Below are positions 1-59,400 of a stretch of 64,000 nt of DNA, piece after piece; within the stretch, counting starts at the first letter, position 1, and each line of letters opens with the position of its first letter. The DNA comes from Vitis vinifera. Taxonomy: Eukaryota > Streptophyta > Magnoliopsida > Vitales > Vitaceae. The position numbers and the translations under genes are program-made. The DNA is taken from assembly GCF_030704535.1 (NCBI RefSeq), contig NC_081822.1:10719001-10783000 (forward strand). Direction: 5' to 3'. Below the pieces are notes generated by a model. That model had not been told where the DNA came from. It ran no database searches and was given only the letters and a program-made list of their open reading frames with translations.

Positions 1-3000
1 CTGGTATATCTGGAGGTTTGTTGAAGGCAAGGGAGCTCCTTCTAGCGCGGCGGCTGTTGCTGGGGGTCCTAGTCTGCAGCAGCAGCAGCAGCAGCAAGAG
101 CAGCAACAACAACATCAGCAGCAACAACATCAGCAGCAGTTTCTCGATCCAATCAATGGCATTCTAAACCTCGGGTATTTTCCCTTATTTTTATATTTGT
201 GCAACTGATTTCAATTATTGACTTGAAGCTGTTCTGAAGTATATTATTGATGTTTCATGCACTTAATTTCTTAACAGTTTTCTGTAGCTTTGGTTGTTTT
301 TGTTATGCTATTTGTGCTTGTACATGCTGTTAGTGGATTTAATTTAATATGTGGCAAATTACTGAATAGTTCAATTTCAATTGCAATTGCCTATGGTTGT
401 ATTTCTTTTTAGGTGCGCTCTATCAAAAAAATAATTTATTTTTCATTGTACCTTAACTCCTAAACAAAATTTAATTCTAATGCTTCTCATTCCTTAATTT
501 TTATCACTAAATAGATGAGCATCTATCCCTGCAACTGTTTAGGTGAGAAGAAGGGCTAGATGTATAAAGAATAAAAACCATTACAAGGGCATTGGACCAA
601 ACGAACCCTACAAGTTTCCTAATCGGTTCATTTGGAGAGTAAAATTTATTTATTTATTTTGATAGATAAACACACAAAATATATATTAGAAAAAGGGCGC
701 TTAAGAGGCAACCCAAAACATACAGGGAGTATGCAAGAGACACTAAAAGGCAAGAACAAAAAAAAAAAAACAAACACTCACCAGCCCTCAACTAGAACCC
801 AACCAATCAAAAAAATTGATTAAAGGTAAGGGTCCTACATCTAAACAAGACTAAGACCAAGACCAAAGATTACAAACAAACGAATTTTTCAACCTTTGAA
901 TCGACAAATCCTCATTAACAAAAGCTATCATGGTTCTTTCCTTCCAAATTGTCTAAAATAAACAAAGAGGAGTTGCCAACCGAGCCTTTCTATGCTTCTT
1001 GCCCACAAAGGAATCATGCCAACCTAAAAGAGTGTCTCTAGCCGAAAGCGAAAGGACCCAATTAACACCAAACAAAGTAAACACAAGCTCCCACAATACC
1101 CTCGCCTTGGAGCAATGAATAAGAATGTGATTTATCGTCTCCTCTTCAACACAACACAGGAAACATCTGTTAGCTAAGTTCCACCCCCTCCTCTTGAGTT
1201 GATCTAGGGTTAGGACCTTCCCCCATGAAGGGAGAGTAAAATTTATTCTTTTGATGTTCCTTTTTCTTACACGCTTAGAACCTTTTGGTTAGGATATTGG
1301 CATGGGAAACACTTCCGAATGGATACCTGAAAGTTTTTTTTTCTCTCTTTTGATAGGTAAATAAAGTGAGTATAATATATAAAAAGCACCAAAAATAGTT
1401 CACCAAGTACATATGATGTATACAATAGTTGTCAAAAGGGATAACCAAAATAAGAGGAAACTATAAAAAACTACTCACTCCCTCAATGAGAACCTAACTA
1501 ATTAGCAAAATCAATTAAAGGAATTGAACCTTTGTTTATCTATGTACAACTTAAACCACAATAAAAGCTTAGTAAGAAAAGTGTTTTCCAGTTTTTGCTT
1601 AGAATATTCCTCATTTTCAAACAATCTTTGATTCTTTTCCTTCCATATTATCCAAAAAAATGCACGAGGAAGCTGCTTGCCACATTTTCATTCATTTTTT
1701 CCCCACAAAGGAGCCATATCATCCTAGCGTCTCTTTGACTATGGAAGATATCACCCAAGACACACCAAACAAAGAAAACAACTACCATGAAAGTGCCTTG
1801 TTTTGGCATCATAAAGGATGATGTAATGAATGGATTCTTCCTCATTTTTACAAAAAAAATTTGTTTGCCAATGACCATTCTCTCATCTAAAATTGATCTA
1901 ACGTCAATATTTTTCCCCATTCGCTTCCTAAGCAAAAAAACTTGCTTTATATGAACCAAAGAATTCCAAATTACTCTCATTGGAAAAGAAATAGATCTCG
2001 TTGACTCCAAGATTGAGTAAAGAGCTTTGATGGAACAAGTTTCATTCATCGGCTTCATCCAAATCACCATATCCTCTCCTTCCCTATCCATCACCTTTCC
2101 TTGTAGTCTATAAAAGCAAAGTTTGACAATGTCTAGCTCCTAATCATTCAAATGCCAGGGAAAACATGGATTCTAGTAACCCTGCTCATTTGATTGGTCC
2201 CATGAATTTGTCACCTATGTTTTCATACCATTTATCATTTCAAAACTTCACTCTCCTTTCATTATCTATAGAAAATAAGACCTTACTATTTTTTTTTTTG
2301 ATAAGTAAAGCAAGATATATTAATGAAGAGGCAGAAAGTTACAAGTATACGGGGGGTATACAAAGTAACAAGCCCCTCACAAAGCCAAAAAAACAACAAG
2401 GCTCACCACCCCTTAGTTGGATGCCAACCATTCCAGGAACCCTATAAGGGACATACGCTCCTCACCAATATACAATCTAGCCCAGCTCCACAAACTACAT
2501 ACAAAAGAATTCTTAAGCTTTTGGATATCTAACACTCCCTCCCTAAAAGCTAGCCTATTTCTTTCCTTCCAAACCGTCCAAAAAATACACAACGGAATGG
2601 ATTTCCATATCTTTTTCCTTTTCTTTCCCAAAAAAGGGCCCCTCCAGCTAGTTAAGACCTCCTTTACAGTTTCTGGAAAGACCCACTGCACACCTGATAA
2701 CCCAAGAACAATATCCCACAAAACTCTGAAAATAAGACCTTACTATTAAAAAGATCTCAATTCTTCTTAATGACTTTTCATAACCCAATCCTATACTCAT
2801 CTCTCGCTTCTCAAGAACGTCATCTCGATTCTTCTTTGTCATATTTTCCACCAAACACCTACTTCCAAAGAGCCTCCATTTAAGATGCATATCACCAACT
2901 CCACTTATGAAGAAGGTTCTTGTTTAAGGAAGAGAGACTTTTAGCTCCCAAACCCCTTCCTTTTCTTTGTGTAGACTATTAAAAGATTAGCTAAAGAAAT

Positions 3001-6000
3001 CAACAATTAATTTTCACACCATATATCTGATTTTTTTTTTTTAATCTTTGTAAAAGTTGACCTATGATTTGTGTACCAAGGATCTGGGTAAATTCTAGAT
3101 AGGACCCTTGCAATCAGATTATTTAATTTAAGGGTTTCTTTTTTGATGGGTAGCTTAATTTGAGGAATCTTGTCAACTTGTCTTCTATATATATTGTAAA
3201 TCAGAATGCACCCATAAAAAAAATATATTGTAAATCAGAATGTAGTGAAGCATACAAGAGATTATTTGTTTTCATTATGGTATCAAAGCAGGAAGTCTAA
3301 TACTGTCAAGATTCATAGAGCCTTCATTGTTACATCACATATAACCTTCATTGTTGTAACTTATTCATTCTTGTAATTGTTGGTAACCTAGTTCCCAAAA
3401 ATAATTACCTAGAGGTTATCTCTTATTTTCTCCGAAAACCAAAAACCTTGGTCTCATTTCCCTAAGATGTCTAAAACTAGTGAAAATACACCATCTTCTC
3501 AAACATCCCTACCCTTCAATCCCTCCTCTACACTCCAAACCTAGCCACCTTTATCTACTATTCATAATGATAGCCCTACACTCTAAATCACCAGTAAAAA
3601 ACTCAATGGATTCACCCAAACTTATGGTATTAATGCCATCAAAGCCAAGGGTATCATACACTATTTATCAAACACAATTCCTCTAGTAAGTTAATTGCTT
3701 TGATAGTTTATGTGGATGACATTATTGTTACTGGAAATGATGAGGGAAAAATGTAAAAGCTAAAAACTTATTTATCTAATAAATTTGAAATCAAGGATCT
3801 AAGGAGTCTAAAATATTTCATTGGGATCGAAGTGACACATTCAAAAGGAGGAATACTTATTTGCCAATAGAAATATATCCTTGATTTGCAAAAGAAGACA
3901 GGGATGCTTAGATGCAAACCAATAGACTTTGATTGAGCAGAATCATAAACTAAGAGGAAAAATAGAGGATGATATAGTAGGCTGCCACCTCTATCAAAGT
4001 TTAGTGGGCAAGTTAATTTGTTTACCTCACACTTGACCAAACATTGCATATGTTGTAGGTGTGATAAGTCAATTCATGTGCACAAGAATCTCCCATGAAG
4101 GCAATATGTTGAATCCTACTTTATCTAAGTCTACACTAAATAAAGGAATTTTATTTTAAAAGATAGGATATATGGAATTTGAAGCTTATAGTGATGTTGA
4201 TTGGGTTAGATCAATTGTCAATAAAAGGTCCACTGCTAGATATTGTACCTTCTTAGGAGGGAATCTAGTTACTTGGAAGAGTAGAAAACAATCAGTAGGG
4301 GTTAGATCTAGCACAAAAGTTGAGTTTAGGGTAATGGCTCAAGGGATTTGTGAACTACGCTAGCACAAAAGTCATTCTTACAGACCTTGGTTTCACTTTG
4401 ATAGGACCTATAAAGCTATATTGTGATAATCAAACTGCTATAAATATAACTTTTTTTTGATAAGTTACTGCTATAAATATAACTTATTACCCTGTTCATC
4501 ACGATCGGACCAAGCATGTGGAGATAGATCGACGTTTCTTCAACGAAAAGCTTGATTCTAGGCTGATTTGCTCTTTGTATGTCCCATATTCTAAATAGTT
4601 GGCAGATATATTGACAAAGGACGTACAAGTTAAACTTTTTATGCAATCTTAGACGAGCTAGGAATGCAAAATATCTTTGCACCAACACCAGCTTGAGGGG
4701 GAGTGTTAGAAGATTAACCCAAGAAGTCAATAATTAATTTTCCTACCATATATTTTTCCTTTTATTTGTAAAAGTAGACCCATGATTTCTGCACTAAGAA
4801 TCTGGCTAAATTTCATATAGGACCCTTGCAATCAAATTACTTAATTTAAGGGATCCATTTTTGATAGGTAGCTTAATTTAAGTGATCTTGTCAATATATA
4901 TATAGATATATATTGTAAATCAGAATCTAATGAAACATATGAGAGATTGTTTTTCATCACAAACAATCACCCACTTCATTAAATATTTTTTTTTTTGATA
5001 AATGAGCGCAAAATATATTAAAAAAGGCCAGAAGGCCGCACCACATACAGGTAGTATACAAAGCAACCATAAGGCCAAAAGCGCAAAAACAGGAACACCT
5101 CACCAGCCCTTAGGGAGTCGCTAACCACTCCAAGAAGCCTAAAAGCGAAGAGGACTCCTCTCCCCTATACACCTTAGCCCAACTCCACAAACTACATACA
5201 AAATTATTCTTGAGAGTCTGAATAGCCAAAGACCCCCCTCTAAAAGCTAACCTATTTCTTTCCTTCCAAACTGTCCAAAAAATATACAACGGAATGGAAT
5301 TCCATATCTTTTTCCTTTTTTACCCACAAAAGGGCCCCTCCAACAGAATAACGCCTCTTTGACCGTCTTTGGACACACCCACTTCATTAAATATTGTTTA
5401 CTCTCTAGAGCCTTGCCACCCTAGTGGAAATTTCTTTGAATCTTTTCTAACCTTAATATGATTGCCTTGAAATGTTGAATAATGACATAAAATAGATGAA
5501 CAAACTGTATAAACAAGGACACAAGATAGATGAAAAACCTGTGTTATTTGCTCCGAATTAGACTGAGCCTCCCCTATTTGGAGATATATTGCCTTTTTTG
5601 TATCGTTGACCTTTTATGGAACCCCTCTTTCACCACATCCCAAGCCGCCAATGGTTTAAAATGGGCACCTAAAGGTAGGACCAAGTAGGTAGACAAAGGG
5701 TCTCCTACCTTACATCGTATTTCAGAGGCAAACTACTCTATGTTATTCACCCTTTCAATTGGAATCAACTCATTCTTCTCTAAGTTTATATTTAGTCCCA
5801 AGATGGCTTTGAACTATATGAAAAACCAGCTCAAATGAGTAATCTGATCTTAAGAAGCCATATAGAAAATTATTGTATCATCAACAAATGGCAAATGGGG
5901 CATTTTCACCCCCTTACCTCCTTTATCACTTACCCCTAAACCCCAACAAGAAGCTTCCCTCCTTAGCCTCTTAAGAAGTCAAGTAAGAGCCTCCATGACT

Positions 6001-35076: not shown

Positions 35077-38000
35077 ATGGGGAGTGACACTGCTGTTGTG
35101 GAACTTCCTTATTACTGTACCATTAAGGTAAAAAGTTAATGTTTATGACATCACAATTTATTATTTATGAAATTCAATGAAATTTTGGTTTATCTTGGTG
35201 GTTTGATCATCTAAGGCTCAGATTTCTTGTCACCAAACCCAAACATCACCATAGACCTTGGTATAAACTTCATCACAAGTTAATCACATTTGACTGTTTA
35301 GTTGGAGTTTCTTTTAAATGAGTGTGTTTTATATTTGGATGATCAAGAAGACAACAATGAATTCGAATCAAATAAATCTAAATACTAATGGGAAAAGAAA
35401 TCTGCCCATGTAGCTTGTCTCAATTACGAGTATTCACTTGTATTGCTGTTGTGATCAAAGTACTTGATGCAAAATAGCAAGTGTGGGAAAGAGGAAAAGT
35501 TTCTCGTCTTCATTAGGTCAAAGACGTAGAATAGGTCCAATGTTACAAGCCATATGGACTGGGATTTTACCAATTGAAAATTGAATGCTACAAACATATT
35601 TTTCCTTAAGTTGAATAGTGTCTGTTTTTCTCCCCTTTCCATCTCTAATTAATCACATATTGAAGTCAATCAAAATAGTCATTTTTATCAAATGGTCTAG
35701 GTGTTTCTTTTTCAAATTATTAGTACTTATCGTAGTTTTTGTTTTCAAATTCTTTCTAGTCTGGTCATATTTATGAATTTCTTCCATGACTGCAGGTGCA
35801 TCGTTTAATCTGCTTAAAGCTAAAGAGTTATATTGATAGAATATCTCAGATATTTTCTGCCATTGAATCTGCTCGACCACGATGTGGAACAGGAATGCAG
35901 GCACTGTGCTCATTACACCATGCGATGGATAAAGCCAAGCTTCTTATCCAGAACTGCACTGAGTCTAGTAAATTATACTTGGTATTGTTTTACAAATAAA
36001 TATAGCTATGCAACTGTTAGAACATTTTCTCACTAAAACCCTCCCTGTAGAAGACCAACATTATTTGCAGGCTTCTATTAAAAATGTAGTGGATCAGTAG
36101 TAAGGGACTCATGCTTCTTGCTAGATGTTTTAACTTCCTATTCAGTTTGCAATTATGTTAATTTAATTATTTAAAGTACTTTTGCAAGGTAATGAATCTC
36201 TTTGTTTCCTAGTCAGGTTACATCATTTGTTGTATTGTTGTGCTGAACATCATTTTGCTCAATATGCTATGGCTGAGAAAGTCTCTGTTTGTTTTGCCAG
36301 GAAAAAAGGCATTATAGTCTTGTGTTGTGGCTAATGTTATTTTCCACTTGATTTTCCTTCATCTTTTGTAATGTTGATATGAATGATATAATCACATCCC
36401 TGCAAAACATTGCAAACCGTGTTACTTCTCCTCCATTCAATATTCCGAAGTTCTTTGGAGCAGTTTTGTTTGCATAAAATATTGCTGTTTAGCAACTTTC
36501 ATTCTCTGCTACTTCATGTGTTTCCAACGGAATATAGAATTTTGGAGGCACATTAGTAGTCACATAGAATCAATTTTAATTTACTTAATTCTGGTTCATT
36601 TTGTGAAGTATGATATTTTTCCTCTCATGACTTTATACATCTATAGTTCATTGTACTAATATATCATGGCTTTTTACCATACATAATCCTTTGGGTAAAT
36701 AATCTGCTGAATAAATTATTTTTCAGGCAATTACAGCAGATAAAATAGTTTTGAGATGTGAAAGAATATGCAACTGTTTGGAGTCGAGTTTAAGACAACT
36801 TCAAAATAATGTTCCAACATTGTTGGCTGCAAAGGTTTGTAATACTCTATGCCTTTGGTTGAATTACTTCTGTTCTTGAAGGTGAATTTATTGACTAGAT
36901 GAAGTTTAATATGATGTGAATGACCTGAAGTTAGCTGCAATTTCTAGCTTTCAGGCAATATGTTATTCCCTAACCAGTATAACATCCTTATTTAACATCT
37001 TTAGAGCATGCTTCTGCAACAGAGTCATATTCTTTGTTACATATAACTAATTTGCGTTTCTTCAACTTGTAGTTCTTATGATCATTCTTCCCACATGAAC
37101 TCTTCTTCATAATATCTTATACTTTGTATTAGTTATTGATAGGTCTTTTTTTCTTCCTTTTGTGTGTGTAGGTCTATGGTTGTTGATACTTATAAACTGC
37201 ATTAACAGTAGCCCATCACTTTATCTCACTTTCCAGATTATAAGCAATGTGTAAGGTTATGCCTCATATTGATTTATATGTAGAACATTTCCTTAGGACT
37301 AGTAAGTTGGCCTGAGTGGAATACAAGGTATGTGCAGATAACATCACAGTGAACATGGTTGCCATTGGTCAAGGATGTAGAGATATCTTGTAGGAACAGA
37401 AGACTGATCAGTCATCAAATCCGTTTTTGTGAGACCTCTCATTGACTGATTTAGCTATATCATCCACCCATCACCAGAATTCCTTCTCCTAGCATAAATT
37501 ACTCATGGTGAATGGTCTGTCAAACAATTATCACTTAACTGGGTTAGTTATAAACTTCAGATATCTACACAAAGCTCATCCACATGATTTAACCTATGGT
37601 GGTCCAATACTAATGCTTCCACAGGTGTGTCTGCTGATATATCAATGAAAATGATAATTGAAATTGAGAAATGACATCATTTCTTGGAATCGTAAACATT
37701 AGCTAATCATGCATGACATATTGAGGTGAAAAAGTTAGCTCATTTCAAATGGGATGTAAAATGAACTGGAATAATTTCAGTTTTGCATTTTCTTCCGATC
37801 TGTTTGTTCTTCTGGTTGCTGAAGGAAAGTTGGTGGTTGTGTTCTAAACAGCCTTAGTTTGACTTCAATCTGAAGTTCCCCATGTCACTCTGTTATCAAC
37901 CTGGCCCCTTTCTTTTCTTTTCAATTTTTTTTCTATATTAATTCTTTGAGGATGAAATATGATCTGCAGATATCTGGTATTGTTGAAGACCTTAAGGGTG

Positions 38001-40835
38001 CAAAATTTACTGTGGAATCTGCTGATGATGAGGCTGGAAGGGTTGTTCTAGCATTGGTTCGGCAGGGCATGCCTGACTCTGAATCTATAAATATTTCTGA
38101 ACTTGAAGCTATTCAAATCGCTGCTTCAAGGCTGAATATTGCATCCCATATGGCACTCTTGATTGAGAAAAGGTCTATAAAGAGGCTAATCGACAAAGTT
38201 CCTGACACAAACCTAACAAAGATGAAAATCTTGAAGTACCTCCTATATCTTCTGAGGAAGTATGGAGATTCAATAAGGAGCCGCAATACTGAGAGCACTA
38301 CTATGTATCAGTCCATTGAGCAAGAACCACATGAAGAAAGTGCAATATATGAAACTCTAGCTGATGACTTCAGTGTAACCAAACCTCCTGAGGAATTCAA
38401 ATGTCCCATCTCTATGAGACTGATGTATGATCCTGTTGTTATAGCTTCTGGGCAAACATATGAAAGATTCTGGATAACTAAGTGGTTCAATGATGGGAAT
38501 GATACATGTCCAAAGACACATGAAAAGTTGTCTCAGTTTTTCCTCACTCCAAACTCCACAATGAAGAACCTCATTTCGAGGTGGTGCTTGAAGCATGGGA
38601 TCAGTATTTCTGATCCATGTTCACAACAAGCTCCTGAATCCCTTCCTTTGCAGAAACTTTCACCATCCACTTCCATTGCTAGCTTTGCCAGTTCTCTGAA
38701 TGGTCTGTGCCTGCAAACCAGCAGTGTGTCATTACACTCTACAGACACCAATTTTCCTTCAAATAAATTGGACATAAGGATGGATATCCTGCAAACCAGC
38801 AGTGTGTCATTACACTCTACAGACACCAATTTTCCTTCAAATAAATTGGACATAAGGATGGATAATGGCTCTGCACACGAGCTTCCTCAGATGAATGCTG
38901 ATTCTCAGGGATGCCAATCTTCTGCAAATAGGCATGGCATGAATTTTGCCTTTCTCTCCAAACTTGCTGCACTTCCATGGGAATCCCAGTGCAAGGAGAT
39001 TGGAAACGTAAGAGATCAACTGAAAGACAGTATTCAAGCATGTCATTCTACATTTTCCTCTAGTTACATCAAACCGCTGATTAGATTTTTGAAGGATGCA
39101 TGTGAAAATGGCAATTTACAAGCACAGCGAGATGGAGCTCTAGTTCTTTTGTATTTTCTAAATAAGCGCAGGTAATACTTCTCTTTGGTACCTTTATTTT
39201 TTCAGAATAAGGAAAAGCTTCTATACTGCCAAGAAAAACTAACTTAAAGATGATCCTCATTGCTCATATTGAGAAAAAAAAATGTAAATAACTATAAGAA
39301 AATGGTTACAGATTTATTGTTCATGCATACATATATATGCAGAAAGTCAACAAACAATTTATTCATTGTTGAAAAGATGGAAGACAAAAATCTCAAGCGA
39401 GGAAAATTTCTCAATTACAATGAAACATTTGATAAGATAACATACTGAAGAAACAAGGAAACTTTGAGAACTGAATAAACATGAATAGAATTGGCTCCTT
39501 TAAAATCGGACAAGAGTCGCTAAGAAGTAAGAAGTTCTAGGCATGCTATAAAATTTGTTGGCAGCTCCAAACTCATTGAACTATGTTAAATAAAATTTAA
39601 GCAAGATTTATGTCTTATCAGCATTTTCAGTTTATAAAGAAAATAAAAAGTATTTCTATTTTGCCTGGATATTTATTGTTGATGAATGAGAAGCACCAAA
39701 GTTAAAGGCATGCTAGAAGAGCAAGATGCTCTCTGGAAATTTAGGCTTCTATGGTGGCATCATGCCTTAAAGGAATTAAACTGGCTGGGTTTTAATCCAG
39801 ATAATACAAGGTTGACACAGTCAATACCATGTGAATCTGCTGAGAACCTGGATCAAGTCTTCATTTTTCCTCCGAATGATGTTTTGTGATCATGCTGCAC
39901 TAGCTTTTGGGCTCAGCATCATGAGATCTTTATTTCTTCACTTATTCAGGCTTCTATTTACCATGTCATCTATTATAATTTTACACTGCTATTCATAATT
40001 TTCTAAATATACATATTTTCCTGTTGATCTGTAAGTATTAATTTAGTTCCCTGCTAATTGATTTTTTTATGTTTCCCGCAGAAGTGAAATGCCACCCTTA
40101 CATGAAGATGCAATTTATGTTTTAGCATCATTTCTGGACTCAGAAATCACTGAAGAAGCGCTTGCAATCATGGAAGTGTTGTCTTGCCAACGTCATTATA
40201 AGTCAGAAATTGTGGCATCTGGTGTTCTTCCTTCCATCATAAAATTCCTTGACACCAAAATGAAGAAATTCCATGTGCTTGCTCTGAAAATACTCTGCAA
40301 TTTGTCCTCAAACCATGATATGGGATACCACATTGTCTATTTGGATTGCATCCCAAAGCTGGCTCCATTCTTTGTTGATCACAAACTTGCAGGATATTGC
40401 ATTAAAATTTTCAGAAACTTGTGTGATATTGAGGAGGCTAGGATTACAGTGGCTGAGACCAATCAATGCATCGATTTCATTGCTAAAATACTAGAAAATG
40501 GCAGTGAGGAGGAGCAAGAAGATGCCTTGGAAGTTCTTCTTTCTCTATGTCATTACAGGGAGTATGGTCAGCTTTTCAGGGAAGATCACATTGTTCAATC
40601 ATTGTTCCATATCTCTCTCAATGGGAATGCCAGAGGACAGGAGATTGCTAAGGAATTACTCCAGCTTTTGAGAAATATTAAAAATGACCCCGTTCTAGAA
40701 TGTTCAAGTTCTAGTTCTACCTCCGATGAAGTCATACAAGATTTTGTTATCAACTCCAAAGGAAAGAAACTGCCGTTGAAGGCATCTAGAATTCTGGGAA
40801 AGAAAATATTAAGATTCAGAAAACCAAGAAGCTAG
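35077..40835 (+). CDS. U-box/ARM-repeat E3 ubiquitin ligase, PUB5-like (five exons)
   Basis: Coding exons are 35077-35127, 35796-35981, 36727-36834, 37970-39171 and 40082-40835, all with GT-AG borders and matching phases, giving 766 aa. The short first exon encodes MGSDTAVVELPYYCTIK. The N-terminal part (to about residue 250) is the helical UND region of plant PUB proteins. The U-box is at about 255-328 (FKCPISMRLMYDPVVIASGQ, TYERFWITKWF, then CPKTHEKL and NSTMKNLISRWC), the E2-binding fold without zinc ligands. The C-terminal half (last exon and end of exon 4) has armadillo-like helices such as LASFLDSEITEEALAIMEVL and FHVLALKILCNLSS for substrate binding. The closest remembered relative is Arabidopsis PUB5 (718 aa). 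A perfect 26-residue tandem duplication follows the U-box. An acceptor at 35052-35054 implies a non-coding upstream exon. Confidence 0.92.
38711..38863 (+). repeat. In-frame 78-bp tandem duplication in the U-box gene
   Basis: Unit 38711-38788 is repeated from 38789 with no difference until about 38863. It encodes LQTSSVSLHSTDTNFPSNKL plus DIRMDI twice (residues about 363-388 and 389-414), in the Ser-rich linker between U-box and ARM repeats. The lack of divergence points to a recent event. Confidence 0.95.
39172..40081 (+). other. Intron 4 of the U-box gene with an embedded protein-like frame
   Basis: The intron is 910 bp and starts GTAATA and ends CCCGCAG. At 39686-39889 it has a 67-codon frame of normal amino-acid composition (WKFRLLWWHHALKELNWLGF, then IPCESAENLDQVFIFPPNDV) which I cannot place. 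It may be a captured exon scrap or chance. Confidence 0.4.
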
Positions 40836-41648: not shown

Positions 41649-43295
41649 TTTTCCGGTCTAGCTGGCTCAGTTGGTTTGCTATGACTTTATATATATAAAG
41701 GACTGTGATATTGAAAAAGAAAGGTGTAGTTCAGTGATATAGAATTTGATTATAAATCAATTTAATTTTTTTATTTATTGTGAAAATTTGCAGGATTATT
41801 TGAATAAATGGGGTAAAATAATCCTAATAGTGTTAAAATAATTCTACACACATTTTAATTTCAAGACTGATATGCCTTTTAAGCATTTTTATTATTTTCA
41901 TTTAGAGGTTCATACAAAAGAGGGGTGAGAAACCACCAAGATGAAGTTTCAGAGAATGGCCTGCCCCCATTTTCCTTCCTGCAGCTTTGTACATCAATTC
42001 ACACGTCTCTATAAAAATCAACCCACATGAAACATGCTCTTAATTAGGTTTCAAAAATGATGTGAAGAAACAAACCACAGTTCTCCCATTCATTTCCTAT
42101 GTTTATGAAAATCTTCATTTTTTGTTTTCCCAAAATCCTTTTTTTTTTTCAACATGCTAGAAACCAAAAAGTGAAAATTTCCTAGTGTTTTACTAATTAA
42201 TAAATGAAAATTTCCTAATTTCCCTTTTTACAATAATAGATATTTTTTAATGAAAATTTTCCTTTATTTTTTATTTATTTCTTCAACATATTAATTAAAA
42301 TTTTCCTTTTTTTAAAAAAAAAATTTCTCCAACTTTTTGGTTTTTTCAAGATGTTAAAACGGTTTCCATTTTATTTTTTTTTGACATTCCTTACTATTTT
42401 TCTTTTTATTTTTTAATGTCCTTCTATTTTCTATCCTTTTTTATATTCCTTACAATTTCCCTTTTATTTTATTCTATATCCTTCTATTTTTATTGATGTT
42501 TCTTACAATTTTCCTTCCATTTATTATATAAACTTTTTTACTTAATTATTATTATTATTATTCTATTTTTTATTTTTTGTGGGGGTGGGGCTTCACCATA
42601 TTAATTCTTAGTTTTTCCTTTCATTTTTTCTTCAATTTTCAATTTTTTTTCCAAAATTTTCTTTTTATTTTAAAATTTTTATTTCAAGAATTAAATATAG
42701 AAATTTATTTTTGAAGATTTGGTTGTAATAAATAATATTTTTAATCATCACCTTTTTTTTTAATATTAGTGCACTCATCATGAGAAACTCATCTTGACGA
42801 TCAAGACAAGTCATCCCTCCAATTAAGAGGTGATGCACTACAATTTCTATTGGATTGTTTAAATCCATGAATCGATTATGGACAACTTATCTACTTATAA
42901 GGAACTCATGATTTGTATCTTTTGTACAACTTTTAATGCATCCAAATCATGTACAATGTAAGAGATATGAGCTAAATGCTCAAATCAATGTCAATACACC
43001 AAATAGATAACAAGAGGATGATTCATGTTAATTGTGTCTAACCTCCTCGTTTGCCACTAGTTCAACTTTGGAGGACTTATATTCACAATTCATCCACCAG
43101 TTTACTATTCATTGGTTTCCTAAGTGTACCTAAATTCTTTGTATCTTTGATTAATACATTGTCTACTCTATTGTAACTCAAAATCTTTGGCATCTTCCAT
43201 TAATGTACCAAAGTATCCTCCCCAAAATTTGTAGAGATAAACTCTCTCCTTCTTGATGTAGCGTTTAGCTAAATATCTAGTGAGTGTTTTTAGCA
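41649..43295. other. AT-rich intergenic DNA
   Basis: A long T-rich stretch with repeated TTTTCCTT-type words lies at about 42,090-42,680. An ATT repeat is at about 42,547-42,562. No gene seen. Confidence 0.5.
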
Positions 43296-43709
43296 TTTAG
43301 GGTTTTAGGGGGTTTAGGGTTTAAGGTTTTAGGTTTTAGGGTTTAGGTTTTAGAGTTTATGGTTTAGGGTTTGAGGTTTGGGGTTTAGGGTTTTAGGTTA
43401 AAGTTCCAATTTCAGTTTTAGGTTTAGGGTTTAAGGTTTGGGGTTTAGGGTTTAGGGTTTGGGGTTTAGGATTTAAGGTATTAGGGTTTAGGGTTTAAGG
43501 TTTGAGATTTAGGTTTTAGGGTTTTGGGATTAGGGTTTAAGGTTTAGGTTTTAGGGATTTGGGATTAGGGTTTGAGATTCAGGGTTGAATGTTTTAGGGT
43601 TTAGGGTTTTAAGATTTTAAGGTTAGGGTTTTAGGGTTTAGGGATTAGGGTTTAGGGTTGTTTGGGTTTTAGGGTTTAGAGTTTGGGATTTAGTGTTTAG
43701 GATTTAGGG
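43296..43709 (+). repeat. Degenerate telomere-like TTTAGGG array
   Basis: About 410 bp made almost wholly of TTTAGGG and close variants (TTTAAGG, TTTGGGG, TTTTAGGG, GATTAGGG), all in the same orientation. TTTAGGG is the Arabidopsis-type telomere unit. The array is broken once by a non-repeat stretch near 43402-43425. It ends directly at the MITE-like element. Confidence 0.9.
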
Positions 43710-57315: not shown

Positions 57316-59400
57316 ATGGCAGAACAGAGGCAACCATTCCGCTTCCGACTCCCTTGGCTGCCAGCACCTGCGGCTCCACGTCCAAGCCCAACACCAACTC
57401 CAGCACAGCCAGCCCCAACCCAGTCAGCCACCGCAGCTCCCATTCTGCGGCCTCCATTTCGGCCTCCAGGGATAGTCCAGGTACAGCCACCTCCTCCTCC
57501 TCCTCCTCCCCCCCAAGATCAAGCACAAGCAGCACCGAGGACAGAGTCTGAGGTACAATCACCACCTTTGGCAGCTGTACGATCACCACCTTTGGCAGCT
57601 GCACGATCACCACCTTTTGTAGCTGCACGATCACCACCCTTTGCAGCTGCACGATCACCACCCTTTGCAGCTGCACGATCACCACCTTTTGCAGCTGCAC
57701 GATCGCCACCTTTGGCAGCTGCCCGATCACCAGTCACTTCTCAGCCAACATCACCAACTCGAGCAGAATACCAATTCCGGACTGGCTCTGTGCCTTCATC
57801 CCCATCTCGTGGGCCCTCTCAATATGCTGGGCCCACATCCTCACAGCCCACTTCTCCATCTCGGACAGCTACTCGGGTGCCACCAACAAGTCAAGTTGTA
57901 TCCCAGCCTGCATCTCCGTCAAGGAGATTACAATCCAGCATTCAAGAGAGCTCCCAGGCTCCTCCCACTTACAGGAGACCCCAAACACTGGCCACCGGGC
58001 CAGAAGAGATGAAGCCAGCAGTGTCTCAGATGTGGTCGCAAGAGCCTCAAACAAAGGCACAGATCACAACCGAGACTCCCAAGTCCCAGGACCAAAACAT
58101 CCTTGGAACCACCGTGGTGGTGGCAGCACCAAAGGCTCCTGCCTCACCTCAGAAATCAGATTCTTCTACCTTAATTGATGATGCAAAGCCCGTCGGAGAA
58201 TATGATCAAATATCAAAAGCGTCTCAGGTAGACACGCAAGAACCTCAATCAAAGGCAGAAATACCATCTTGGACTCTTCCAACCTCACGGGTGGTAGCAC
58301 AGCCTTCACAGGCTCCAGGTCCTGTAGCAGCAGCACTACCAACATCTGCAGCAATAGAGACGCCTTCCGGACCTCAGAAGCCAGATTCTTATGCTGTTAC
58401 TTCTGTTTGGAAGCGCTTTTCATCAGAACCAAAGTCGGAGGAGACTGAAGAAAGGAAGAAAGTAGAGCAAGAACTCATAAAAGAAGAGAAGACCAATGGC
58501 CCAGCTTATGAGACACCAAAGCAGATGGCAGAGGCTGAGATTCATACAATTACACCTCATTCAAAAATACAGATCAAAGAGCAGCAGGCTGTCACATTTC
58601 CAGGTTTACAAAAGCAGCCGGGGAAGCGAGAGATTCTTGACAGAAAAGAGATATTATTGACTTCTGGCACCAGTGGAAAACAGAGTAAGACGGTGATTTC
58701 AACACATCCAAAGGATCGGAGCCCAGTAAGTGAACCCCGTCCAAAGCCTGCTACATTCAATGGGGAACGAGCACCCCTGCACAAAGAGATAAGAGAAGAT
58801 ATCTCCAAATTTGTTCATAAGCTGACCACCGGGCACCCAAAACAACCAATGGACGAAAAGCCAATTAGTATCACAAACCTAGTTGGTGAAAACAGAGGAG
58901 CATCAATGCACTTTGTTCCTGAGTCAGCAAAGAAAGATGCATCGCTTCACATTCATAGGGGCTATAAGGCCAACACAGATGAGGGCGGCGTTGAGAACAT
59001 TGAAGGAGAAGGAAGTTCCAGGGAGGATTCAATGATCAAAGAAGTTGAGGCAACCAAAGCATATATTAACAGCAACGTACAGAGCATCAATAACTCGATT
59101 TTTTGCGATGCTGCTGTTACAGAAAGGAATCCTGGTGTTCAGTTGGGAATCTCATGTACCCCGACAGCACAGGCGAAGTTTGGTTGTAAAGAAGAGCCCC
59201 TAGAGGCACACAAGGCCGAATTCAGTGTTACCCCTTCTCAAAAGCTGACGTACGAGCCTGTCATCAAGAGACGATGCCTCAGAGGCCTCTTCTTGGAATC
59301 AAGCGATTCTGACCCAGACAATCCAGAAAAGCCTAAGCGTCATGGCTGCCGCTATAGCTCTGGGGAGAAGAGCAAAGGCAACAATACAGATGTTGTGTGA
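57316..59400 (+). CDS. Proline-rich low-complexity protein with RSPPxAAA repeats, unknown function
   Basis: One uninterrupted frame of 694 aa. The N-terminal third is very rich in Pro, Ala, Ser and Gln: MAEQRQPFRFRLPWLPAPAA, a run of nine prolines, then about seven tandem RSPP(L/F)AAA units (about residues 80-138), then SQPTSPSR-type repeats. The middle is hydrophilic and Lys/Glu-rich (KSEETEERKKVEQELIKEEK). The C-terminal part has the less repetitive, probably conserved segments DISKFVHKLTTGHPKQPMDE, KPISITNLVGENRGASMHF, AYINSNVQSINNSIFCDAAV and ERNPGVQLGIS, ending with KRRCLRGLFLESSDSDP. No signal peptide or membrane segment, so a cytosolic or nuclear disordered protein is likely. Plant homologues are often labelled proteoglycan-4-like or mucin-like because of composition only. 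The uninterrupted length and the C-terminal part make it a real gene; function unknown. Confidence 0.85.
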   Translation: MAEQRQPFRFRLPWLPAPAAPRPSPTPTPAQPAPTQSATAAPILRPPFRPPGIVQVQPPPPPPPPPQDQAQAAPRTESEVQSPPLAAVRSPPLAAARSPPFVAARSPPFAAARSPPFAAARSPPFAAARSPPLAAARSPVTSQPTSPTRAEYQFRTGSVPSSPSRGPSQYAGPTSSQPTSPSRTATRVPPTSQVVSQPASPSRRLQSSIQESSQAPPTYRRPQTLATGPEEMKPAVSQMWSQEPQTKAQITTETPKSQDQNILGTTVVVAAPKAPASPQKSDSSTLIDDAKPVGEYDQISKASQVDTQEPQSKAEIPSWTLPTSRVVAQPSQAPGPVAAALPTSAAIETPSGPQKPDSYAVTSVWKRFSSEPKSEETEERKKVEQELIKEEKTNGPAYETPKQMAEAEIHTITPHSKIQIKEQQAVTFPGLQKQPGKREILDRKEILLTSGTSGKQSKTVISTHPKDRSPVSEPRPKPATFNGERAPLHKEIREDISKFVHKLTTGHPKQPMDEKPISITNLVGENRGASMHFVPESAKKDASLHIHRGYKANTDEGGVENIEGEGSSREDSMIKEVEATKAYINSNVQSINNSIFCDAAVTERNPGVQLGISCTPTAQAKFGCKEEPLEAHKAEFSVTPSQKLTYEPVIKRRCLRGLFLESSDSDPDNPEKPKRHGCRYSSGEKSKGNNTDVV
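57556..57732 (+). repeat. 24-bp minisatellite encoding RSPPxAAA
   Basis: About seven units of CGATCACCACC(T/C)TTTGCAGCTGCA with small changes (TTGGCAGCT, TTTGTAGCT). The unit is eight codons, so length changes keep the frame. The opposite strand is also open over the array, which explains false antisense frames. Confidence 0.95.

What the first reader, a model, noticed from the sequence alone, without database searches (positions are those of the whole stretch)
4434..4485. A 14-bp insertion with a 19-bp target-site duplication: a nearly vanished LINE
The copia internal region has two exact copies of a 19-bp sequence around ttttttgataagtt. On the minus strand the insert is eight LINE-like terminal bases plus six A, the same terminus as LINE copy B. 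Target-primed reverse transcription normally gives 5' truncation, but stopping after about 8 bases of template with a normal duplication would show that second-strand attachment can occur almost at once. Such events are invisible to repeat finders that need longer matches.
Basis: partly seen in the sequence, partly recalled or inferred. Interest (0 to 1): 0.72.

Follow-up and report, generated by a model that had tools for sequence, protein, structure and literature searches.

The report
Near-zero-length LINE insertions with normal duplications
A 14-base scrap inside a dead plant retrotransposon is what remains of a jumping gene that copied only its last seven or so letters before being sealed in, and the same genome holds many more such scraps, which ordinary repeat searches would miss.

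Summary
Five distinct paralogues of this copia segment in the same genome lack the 33 bp, so it is an insertion with a target-site duplication. T8GATAAGTAA is the antisense 3' end of an abundant LINE family (1013 genome matches against 3 reversed; zf-RVT upstream of one copy).

T8GATAAGT followed by a non-A base occurs 232 times (39 reversed). Of the first 100 listed, 52 have hugging direct repeats of score >=13, against 5 of 993 flank-swapped controls. After dropping four duplicates, 44 of 96 carry a LINE part of 3-11 nt. In 60 T8GATAAGTAA sites, lengths were 6-12 nt (6), 22 (1), 49-143 (10), 180-399 (6); 37 unresolved. Events per nucleotide at 6-12 nt are roughly 22-fold those at 13-150 nt (about 8-fold on conservative bounds).

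Best reading: target-primed reverse transcription halted almost at once, with normal nicking and attachment. Whether the peak lies at 6-8 nt or continues down to pure poly(A) is untested.

The parts
4434..4452 (-). target-site duplication, copy 1 (3' copy in LINE sense)
   Evidence: 19/19 identical to 4467-4485; single copy in 5 distinct paralogues
4453..4466 (-). mini-insert: LINE sense AACTTATC + A6 (A8 with the flank)
   Evidence: same terminus as LINE at 2291 and as the 1013-copy genome motif
4467..4485 (-). target-site duplication, copy 2 (5' copy in LINE sense)
3189..3208 (+). target-site duplication copy 1 of a second mini-insertion, in the 5' LTR
   Evidence: 20/20 identical to 3223-3242
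3209..3222 (+). second mini-insert CACCCAT + A7 (A8 with the flank); source RNA unknown
   Evidence: the 3' LTR of the same element has one copy only (last base differs), an internal empty site
3223..3242 (+). target-site duplication copy 2 of the second mini-insertion
4840..4887 (-). possible older mini-insertion fixed in the copia LTR: 16-bp repeats (1 mismatch) around CATTTTTGATAGGTAG; a decayed counterpart near 3122-3170 in the 5' LTR
   Evidence: score 13, shared with several unrelated pairs, so weaker than the other two
2291..2727 (-). 5'-truncated LINE of ordinary size (437 bp), 20-bp exact TSD at 2271-2290 and 2728-2747
   Evidence: encodes a tail 80% identical over 49 aa to a zf-RVT LINE protein in L189
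4988..5375 (-). 5'-truncated LINE of ordinary size (388 bp), 20-bp exact TSD at 4968-4987 and 5376-5395
2979..4967 (+). decayed copia-type element; LTR segments about 80% identical over 230 columns; both ends approximate

Best explanation
The feature is a LINE insertion reduced almost to nothing. A plant LINE endonuclease nicked the plus strand at ...AACTT/ATTA. The poly(A) end of a LINE RNA annealed to the T-rich 3' end, and the reverse transcriptase copied the poly(A) and only about 7 bases of the LINE. The other strand was cut about 19 nt away, and the tiny cDNA was joined to it (one extra base at the junction). Fill-in made the 19-bp duplication. Shown: exact duplication, empty sites in paralogues, LINE terminus, A tail at the expected end, tens of further independent examples. 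Inferred: the nick, that synthesis stopped early rather than that a short RNA was copied to its end, and that host end-joining made the junction.
For: Exact 19-bp TSD; empty site in 5 of 5 distinct spanning paralogues fetched. LINE 3' motif T8GATAAGTAA: 1013 against 3 reversed control, with zf-RVT E=2.5e-22 upstream in L189. T8GATAAGTB: 232 against 39 reversed; 52/100 with hugging repeats against 5/993 swapped. 49 of 96 non-duplicate sites pass with score >=13; the base before the inferred nick is T in 35/49, a figure inflated because T's shared with the run are assigned to the duplication. 44 of the 49 have a LINE part of 3-11 nt; flanks share no similarity at E 1e-4, TSD median 19, 23/49 exact. 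Sites with T8GATAAGTAA: 23/60 resolved, 6 at 6-12 nt. In the window, 4 of the 10 A-tail hits have exact 19-20-bp TSDs: two inserts of 14 bp, two of 437 and 388 bp; the reversed control gave 5 hits, four of them repeats of 40 bases and one of 12, none of that kind.
Against: The insert also carries an 8-bp inverted match to its flank (ATAAGTTA at 4460, TAACTTAT at 4480), so snap-back repair could write half of it for this one site. The eighth base does not match the window's LINE. The second mini-insert (CACCCAT-A8) has no identified source. In 200 kb of random genome (20 stretches, 5,000 of the bases N) no exact repeat of >=16 bp with a gap of 3-70 bp had an insert bordered by T6 or A6 in this way, though at the density found (a few hundred per 496 Mb for this motif) none is expected there. 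37 of 60 long-class sites are unresolved, so the density ratio is rough. The fetched sites are the first listed (contigs C1-C9 and C1-C3), not a random draw.
Confidence: 0.92

Rival explanations
1. Double-strand-break repair: staggered nicks filled in by end-joining make a duplication, with templated filler between the copies.
For: Short duplications with unrelated inserts exist in this window (11 exact pairs of 12-15 bp). The insert has an 8-bp inverted match to its flank.
Against: Does not explain why 52 of 100 sites with one LINE-terminus motif have hugging repeats against 5 of 993 swapped controls, nor the A tail on the correct side.
Confidence: 0.04
2. Template truncation, not early stopping: nucleases or decay leave LINE 3' fragments of a few bases plus poly(A) bound to the LINE protein, and these are copied to their end.
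For: Same product structure; a narrow length class would fit a fixed protected footprint as well as a stop.
Against: No such RNA was looked for here; it needs very short RNAs to stay bound. No call separates the two.
Confidence: 0.25
3. The 6-12-nt class is only the visible shoulder of pure poly(A) insertions, with no preference for 6-8 nt.
For: The searched patterns demand at least GATAAGT, so 0-5-nt events could hardly be seen. One poly(T) insertion is on record in human NF1, read there as a severely truncated Alu, L1 or processed pseudogene (PMC3219598, passages).
Against: None direct; the T10GATA search meant to test it did not complete (and repeats).
Confidence: 0.4
4. Simple-repeat slippage or unequal crossover made the two 19-bp copies.
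For: AT-rich site.
Against: The 19-mer is not a simple repeat and slippage does not add a LINE terminus; five distinct paralogues have one copy.
Confidence: 0.01

Closest known systems
Severely truncated L1/Alu insertion seen as a bare poly(T) stretch (human NF1 exon 25; PMC3219598, passages read; first author Wimmer recalled)
   Same: Read by its authors as an L1-endonuclease event with almost no element sequence
   Different: One human case, origin unassignable; here the last 6-8 LINE bases identify the source and there are tens of copies in a plant
5'-truncated L1 insertions with TSDs (PMC2912911, abstract and passages read; author Kojima recalled)
   Same: Same mechanism class, TSD and junction features
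   Different: That survey kept insertions of 50-10,000 bp only, so this class was outside its reach
Patch-mediated tandem duplication with filler in plants (recalled; only a search listing was seen)
   Same: Short direct repeats around a filler
   Different: Filler there is not known to be a LINE terminus with an A tail (recalled)

Membership tests
LINE (TPRT) insertion | target-site duplication | tested here: met
   19/19 exact; empty paralogues
LINE (TPRT) insertion | 3' A tail on the correct side | tested here: met
   A6-A8 next to the 3' copy
LINE (TPRT) insertion | terminal LINE sequence next to the A tail | tested here: met
   ACTTATC as in LINE at 2291; 1013 genome copies of the terminus; only 7 bases here
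LINE (TPRT) insertion | endonuclease-type nick (T-rich/A) | tested here: inconclusive
   CTT/AT here, compatible; T before the inferred nick in 35/49 class members, but the assignment of shared T's inflates this
LINE (TPRT) insertion | source family encodes reverse transcriptase and endonuclease | tested here: inconclusive
   zf-RVT found upstream of one T8GATAAGTAA end; RT core and endonuclease not found in the two ORFs tested of the 5.5 kb read
LINE (TPRT) insertion | L1 clade | not tested
   clade recalled, no tree made
Double-strand-break repair with filler | filler unrelated to a single RNA terminus | tested here: not met
   52/100 against 5/993

The most novel reading that the evidence does not exclude
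LINE insertion has an early checkpoint: after poly(A) and about 6-8 template bases, either the enzyme passes into processive synthesis or the nascent cDNA is captured and sealed with a normal duplication. The failed events form a hidden, discrete class in this genome, comparable in number to LINE copies of 13-150 bp, and possibly more numerous.
Probability: 0.35. Interest if true: 0.78.

Novelty: new variant of a known kind. Interest (0 to 1): 0.62.

Why it matters
How the second end of a LINE is attached is poorly understood. These scars indicate that attachment and a normal duplication need almost no cDNA, and their lengths may record where early synthesis fails. They also add a source of short insertions with duplications in plant genomes that repeat annotation, which needs longer matches, would likely assign to slippage or repair. 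The class can be counted in any assembly with a known LINE terminus.

Tried and rejected
Slippage and unequal crossover were rejected. Filler repair was rejected for the class. A random survey was started (20 stretches of 10 kb) but is too small for this density. Its A-tailed TSD scan gave 23 hits against 25 in the reversed control, so that scan alone has no power. Pfam on the short copia and LINE-tail pieces gave nothing. Structure prediction and the viral, phage, plasmid and bacterial collections were not used: not relevant to a plant nuclear repeat.

Rows dropped: one search left out the arrays at 43250-43700 and 57450-57750, low-complexity repeats and gaps under 3. Searches dropped L064, L065, L066 and L090 as duplicates. 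One search used 60 of the 100 listed T8GATAAGTAA places (of 1013): the first 20 were picked by eye at roughly every fifth, three of them fetched short (L134 607, L144 137, L145 674 bases; the slip is mine); the left-flank-swap control was run on the first 40 only. L004 and L006 are the same place and count once.

Literature: no paper on 6-8-nt plant LINE insertions was seen in the listings of the nine answered searches (two searches listed nothing). Passages of three papers were read; PMC4859970 is not used. The library lacks most subscription journals.

Full report
Observation. The two 19-bp copies and the 14-bp insert are exactly as described. The window's Markov-4 simulations gave on average 0.45 exact non-low-complexity repeats of >=12 bp within 60 bp, none longer than 14 bp in 40 runs. 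The window itself has 47 such pairs; outside two tandem arrays and one 77-bp tandem duplication there are 13. The two longest (20 and 19 bp) both surround 14-bp inserts with a run of 7 A or 6 T at the border; the other 11 are 12-15 bp and lack this. One of the two is the finding; the other lies in the 5' LTR of the same copia (3189-3242).

Setting. The site lies in a decayed copia element (LTR segments 80% identical over 230 columns). The frame reads through a recognisable RNase H motif (recalled) that the 33 bp interrupts with two stops. In the same genome, 54 matches to the segment were listed. Eight loci were returned, one of them the window itself and two of them the same place. All five distinct places that span the site align across it without the 33 bp, and a sixth partial one (L008) also lacks it. 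For the LTR event, the element's own 3' LTR has a single copy of the 20-mer, its last base different. At about 20% LTR divergence a 19-bp and a 20-bp pair would stay identical with chance about 1% each (a crude figure), so both insertions are probably younger than the copia.

LINE terminus. Two ordinary truncated LINEs sit nearby (437 and 388 bp, 20-bp exact TSDs). The first ends ACTTATC-A(n), as does the mini-insert; the second ends ATTTATC. T8GATAAGTAA occurs 1013 times in the 496-Mb assembly against 3 for the reversed pattern. One copy fetched at length (L189) has a zf-RVT domain upstream (E=2.5e-22), and its protein matches the tail coded by the window's LINE (80% over 49 aa).

Genome test. 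T8GATAAGT followed by C, G or T was counted: 232, against 39 reversed. The first 100 listed places (contigs C1-C9) were fetched. 52 have a direct repeat of score >=13 hugging the insert, against 5 of 993 when right flanks are swapped between loci. Of these, 44 have a LINE part of 3-11 nt, most often GATAAG (18) or GATAAGT (11); five have 15-51 nt. The pattern itself demands GATAAGT, so the preference for 6-7 nt inside this sample is forced. TSD median is 19; 23 are exact, 17 have one mismatch; flanks show no similarity to each other. The base before the inferred nick is T in 35/49, inflated because T's shared with the run go to the duplication. Of the 100, 16 exceed the shuffled maximum in similarity to the window's LINEs, that is, they read on as LINEs; by eye some others belong to one unrelated repeat.

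Lengths. To see longer truncations, 60 of the 100 listed T8GATAAGTAA places (contigs C1-C3) were fetched, nearly all with about 640 bases of element side. 23 resolve with score >=11: 6, 7, 7, 9, 11, 12; 22; 49, 58, 60, 77, 81, 88, 123, 125, 134, 143; 180, 231, 265, 281, 345, 399; 37 do not. Left-flank swaps on the first 40 gave 2 of 197 at that score, none with an insert under 60 even at score 9. Extrapolated, about 106 (83-131) of the 232 and about 101 (38-208) of the 1013 are mini-insertions, against about 186 (96-308) of 13-150 nt among the 1013. Density at 6-12 nt is about 22 times that at 13-150 nt, about 8 times on conservative bounds. Minis whose duplicated flank does not happen to continue the motif (GATAAG followed by A, C or G) are not counted, so the mini total is likely an undercount.

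Against. For this single site an 8-bp inverted match to the flank allows snap-back filler. The eighth base is not LINE. Lengths under 6 nt could not be sampled because the T10GATA search did not complete. The 200-kb random sample holds no example among its 79 listed pairs, which the estimated density predicts; its A-tail scan did no better than its control (23 against 25).

Reading. The event is a TPRT insertion that copied about seven bases. That such events are frequent, keep normal duplications and are concentrated at very short length is the real finding. Whether synthesis stops early, a short RNA fragment is copied, or this is the edge of a pure poly(A) class remains open.

Noticed in passing
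3189-3242: A second 14-bp A-tailed insertion (CACCCAT-A8) with an exact 20-bp duplication in the 5' LTR of the same copia; its terminus is not the LINE's, so it may come from another RNA.
   Followed up: partly
4840-4887 (and about 3122-3170): LINE-terminus-like TTTTTGATAGGTAG between imperfect 16-bp repeats inside the copia LTR, present in both LTRs: perhaps a mini-insertion carried by the copia family itself.
   Followed up: partly
42247-42313: AT-rich near-repeat of 19-23 bp around a T-rich 21-25-bp insert, of uncertain origin.
   Followed up: no
38710-38864: 77-78-bp tandem duplication, in frame (26 codons), inside the ORF at 37946-39175.
   Followed up: no
43309-43680: Array of degenerate TTTAGGG-like units (telomere-like).
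   Followed up: no
57558-57704: 24-bp tandem repeats in a proline-rich ORF (57316-59400).
   Followed up: no
634-1247: Further LINE remnant; flanks read GGAGAGTAAAATTTATT on both sides by eye.
   Followed up: no
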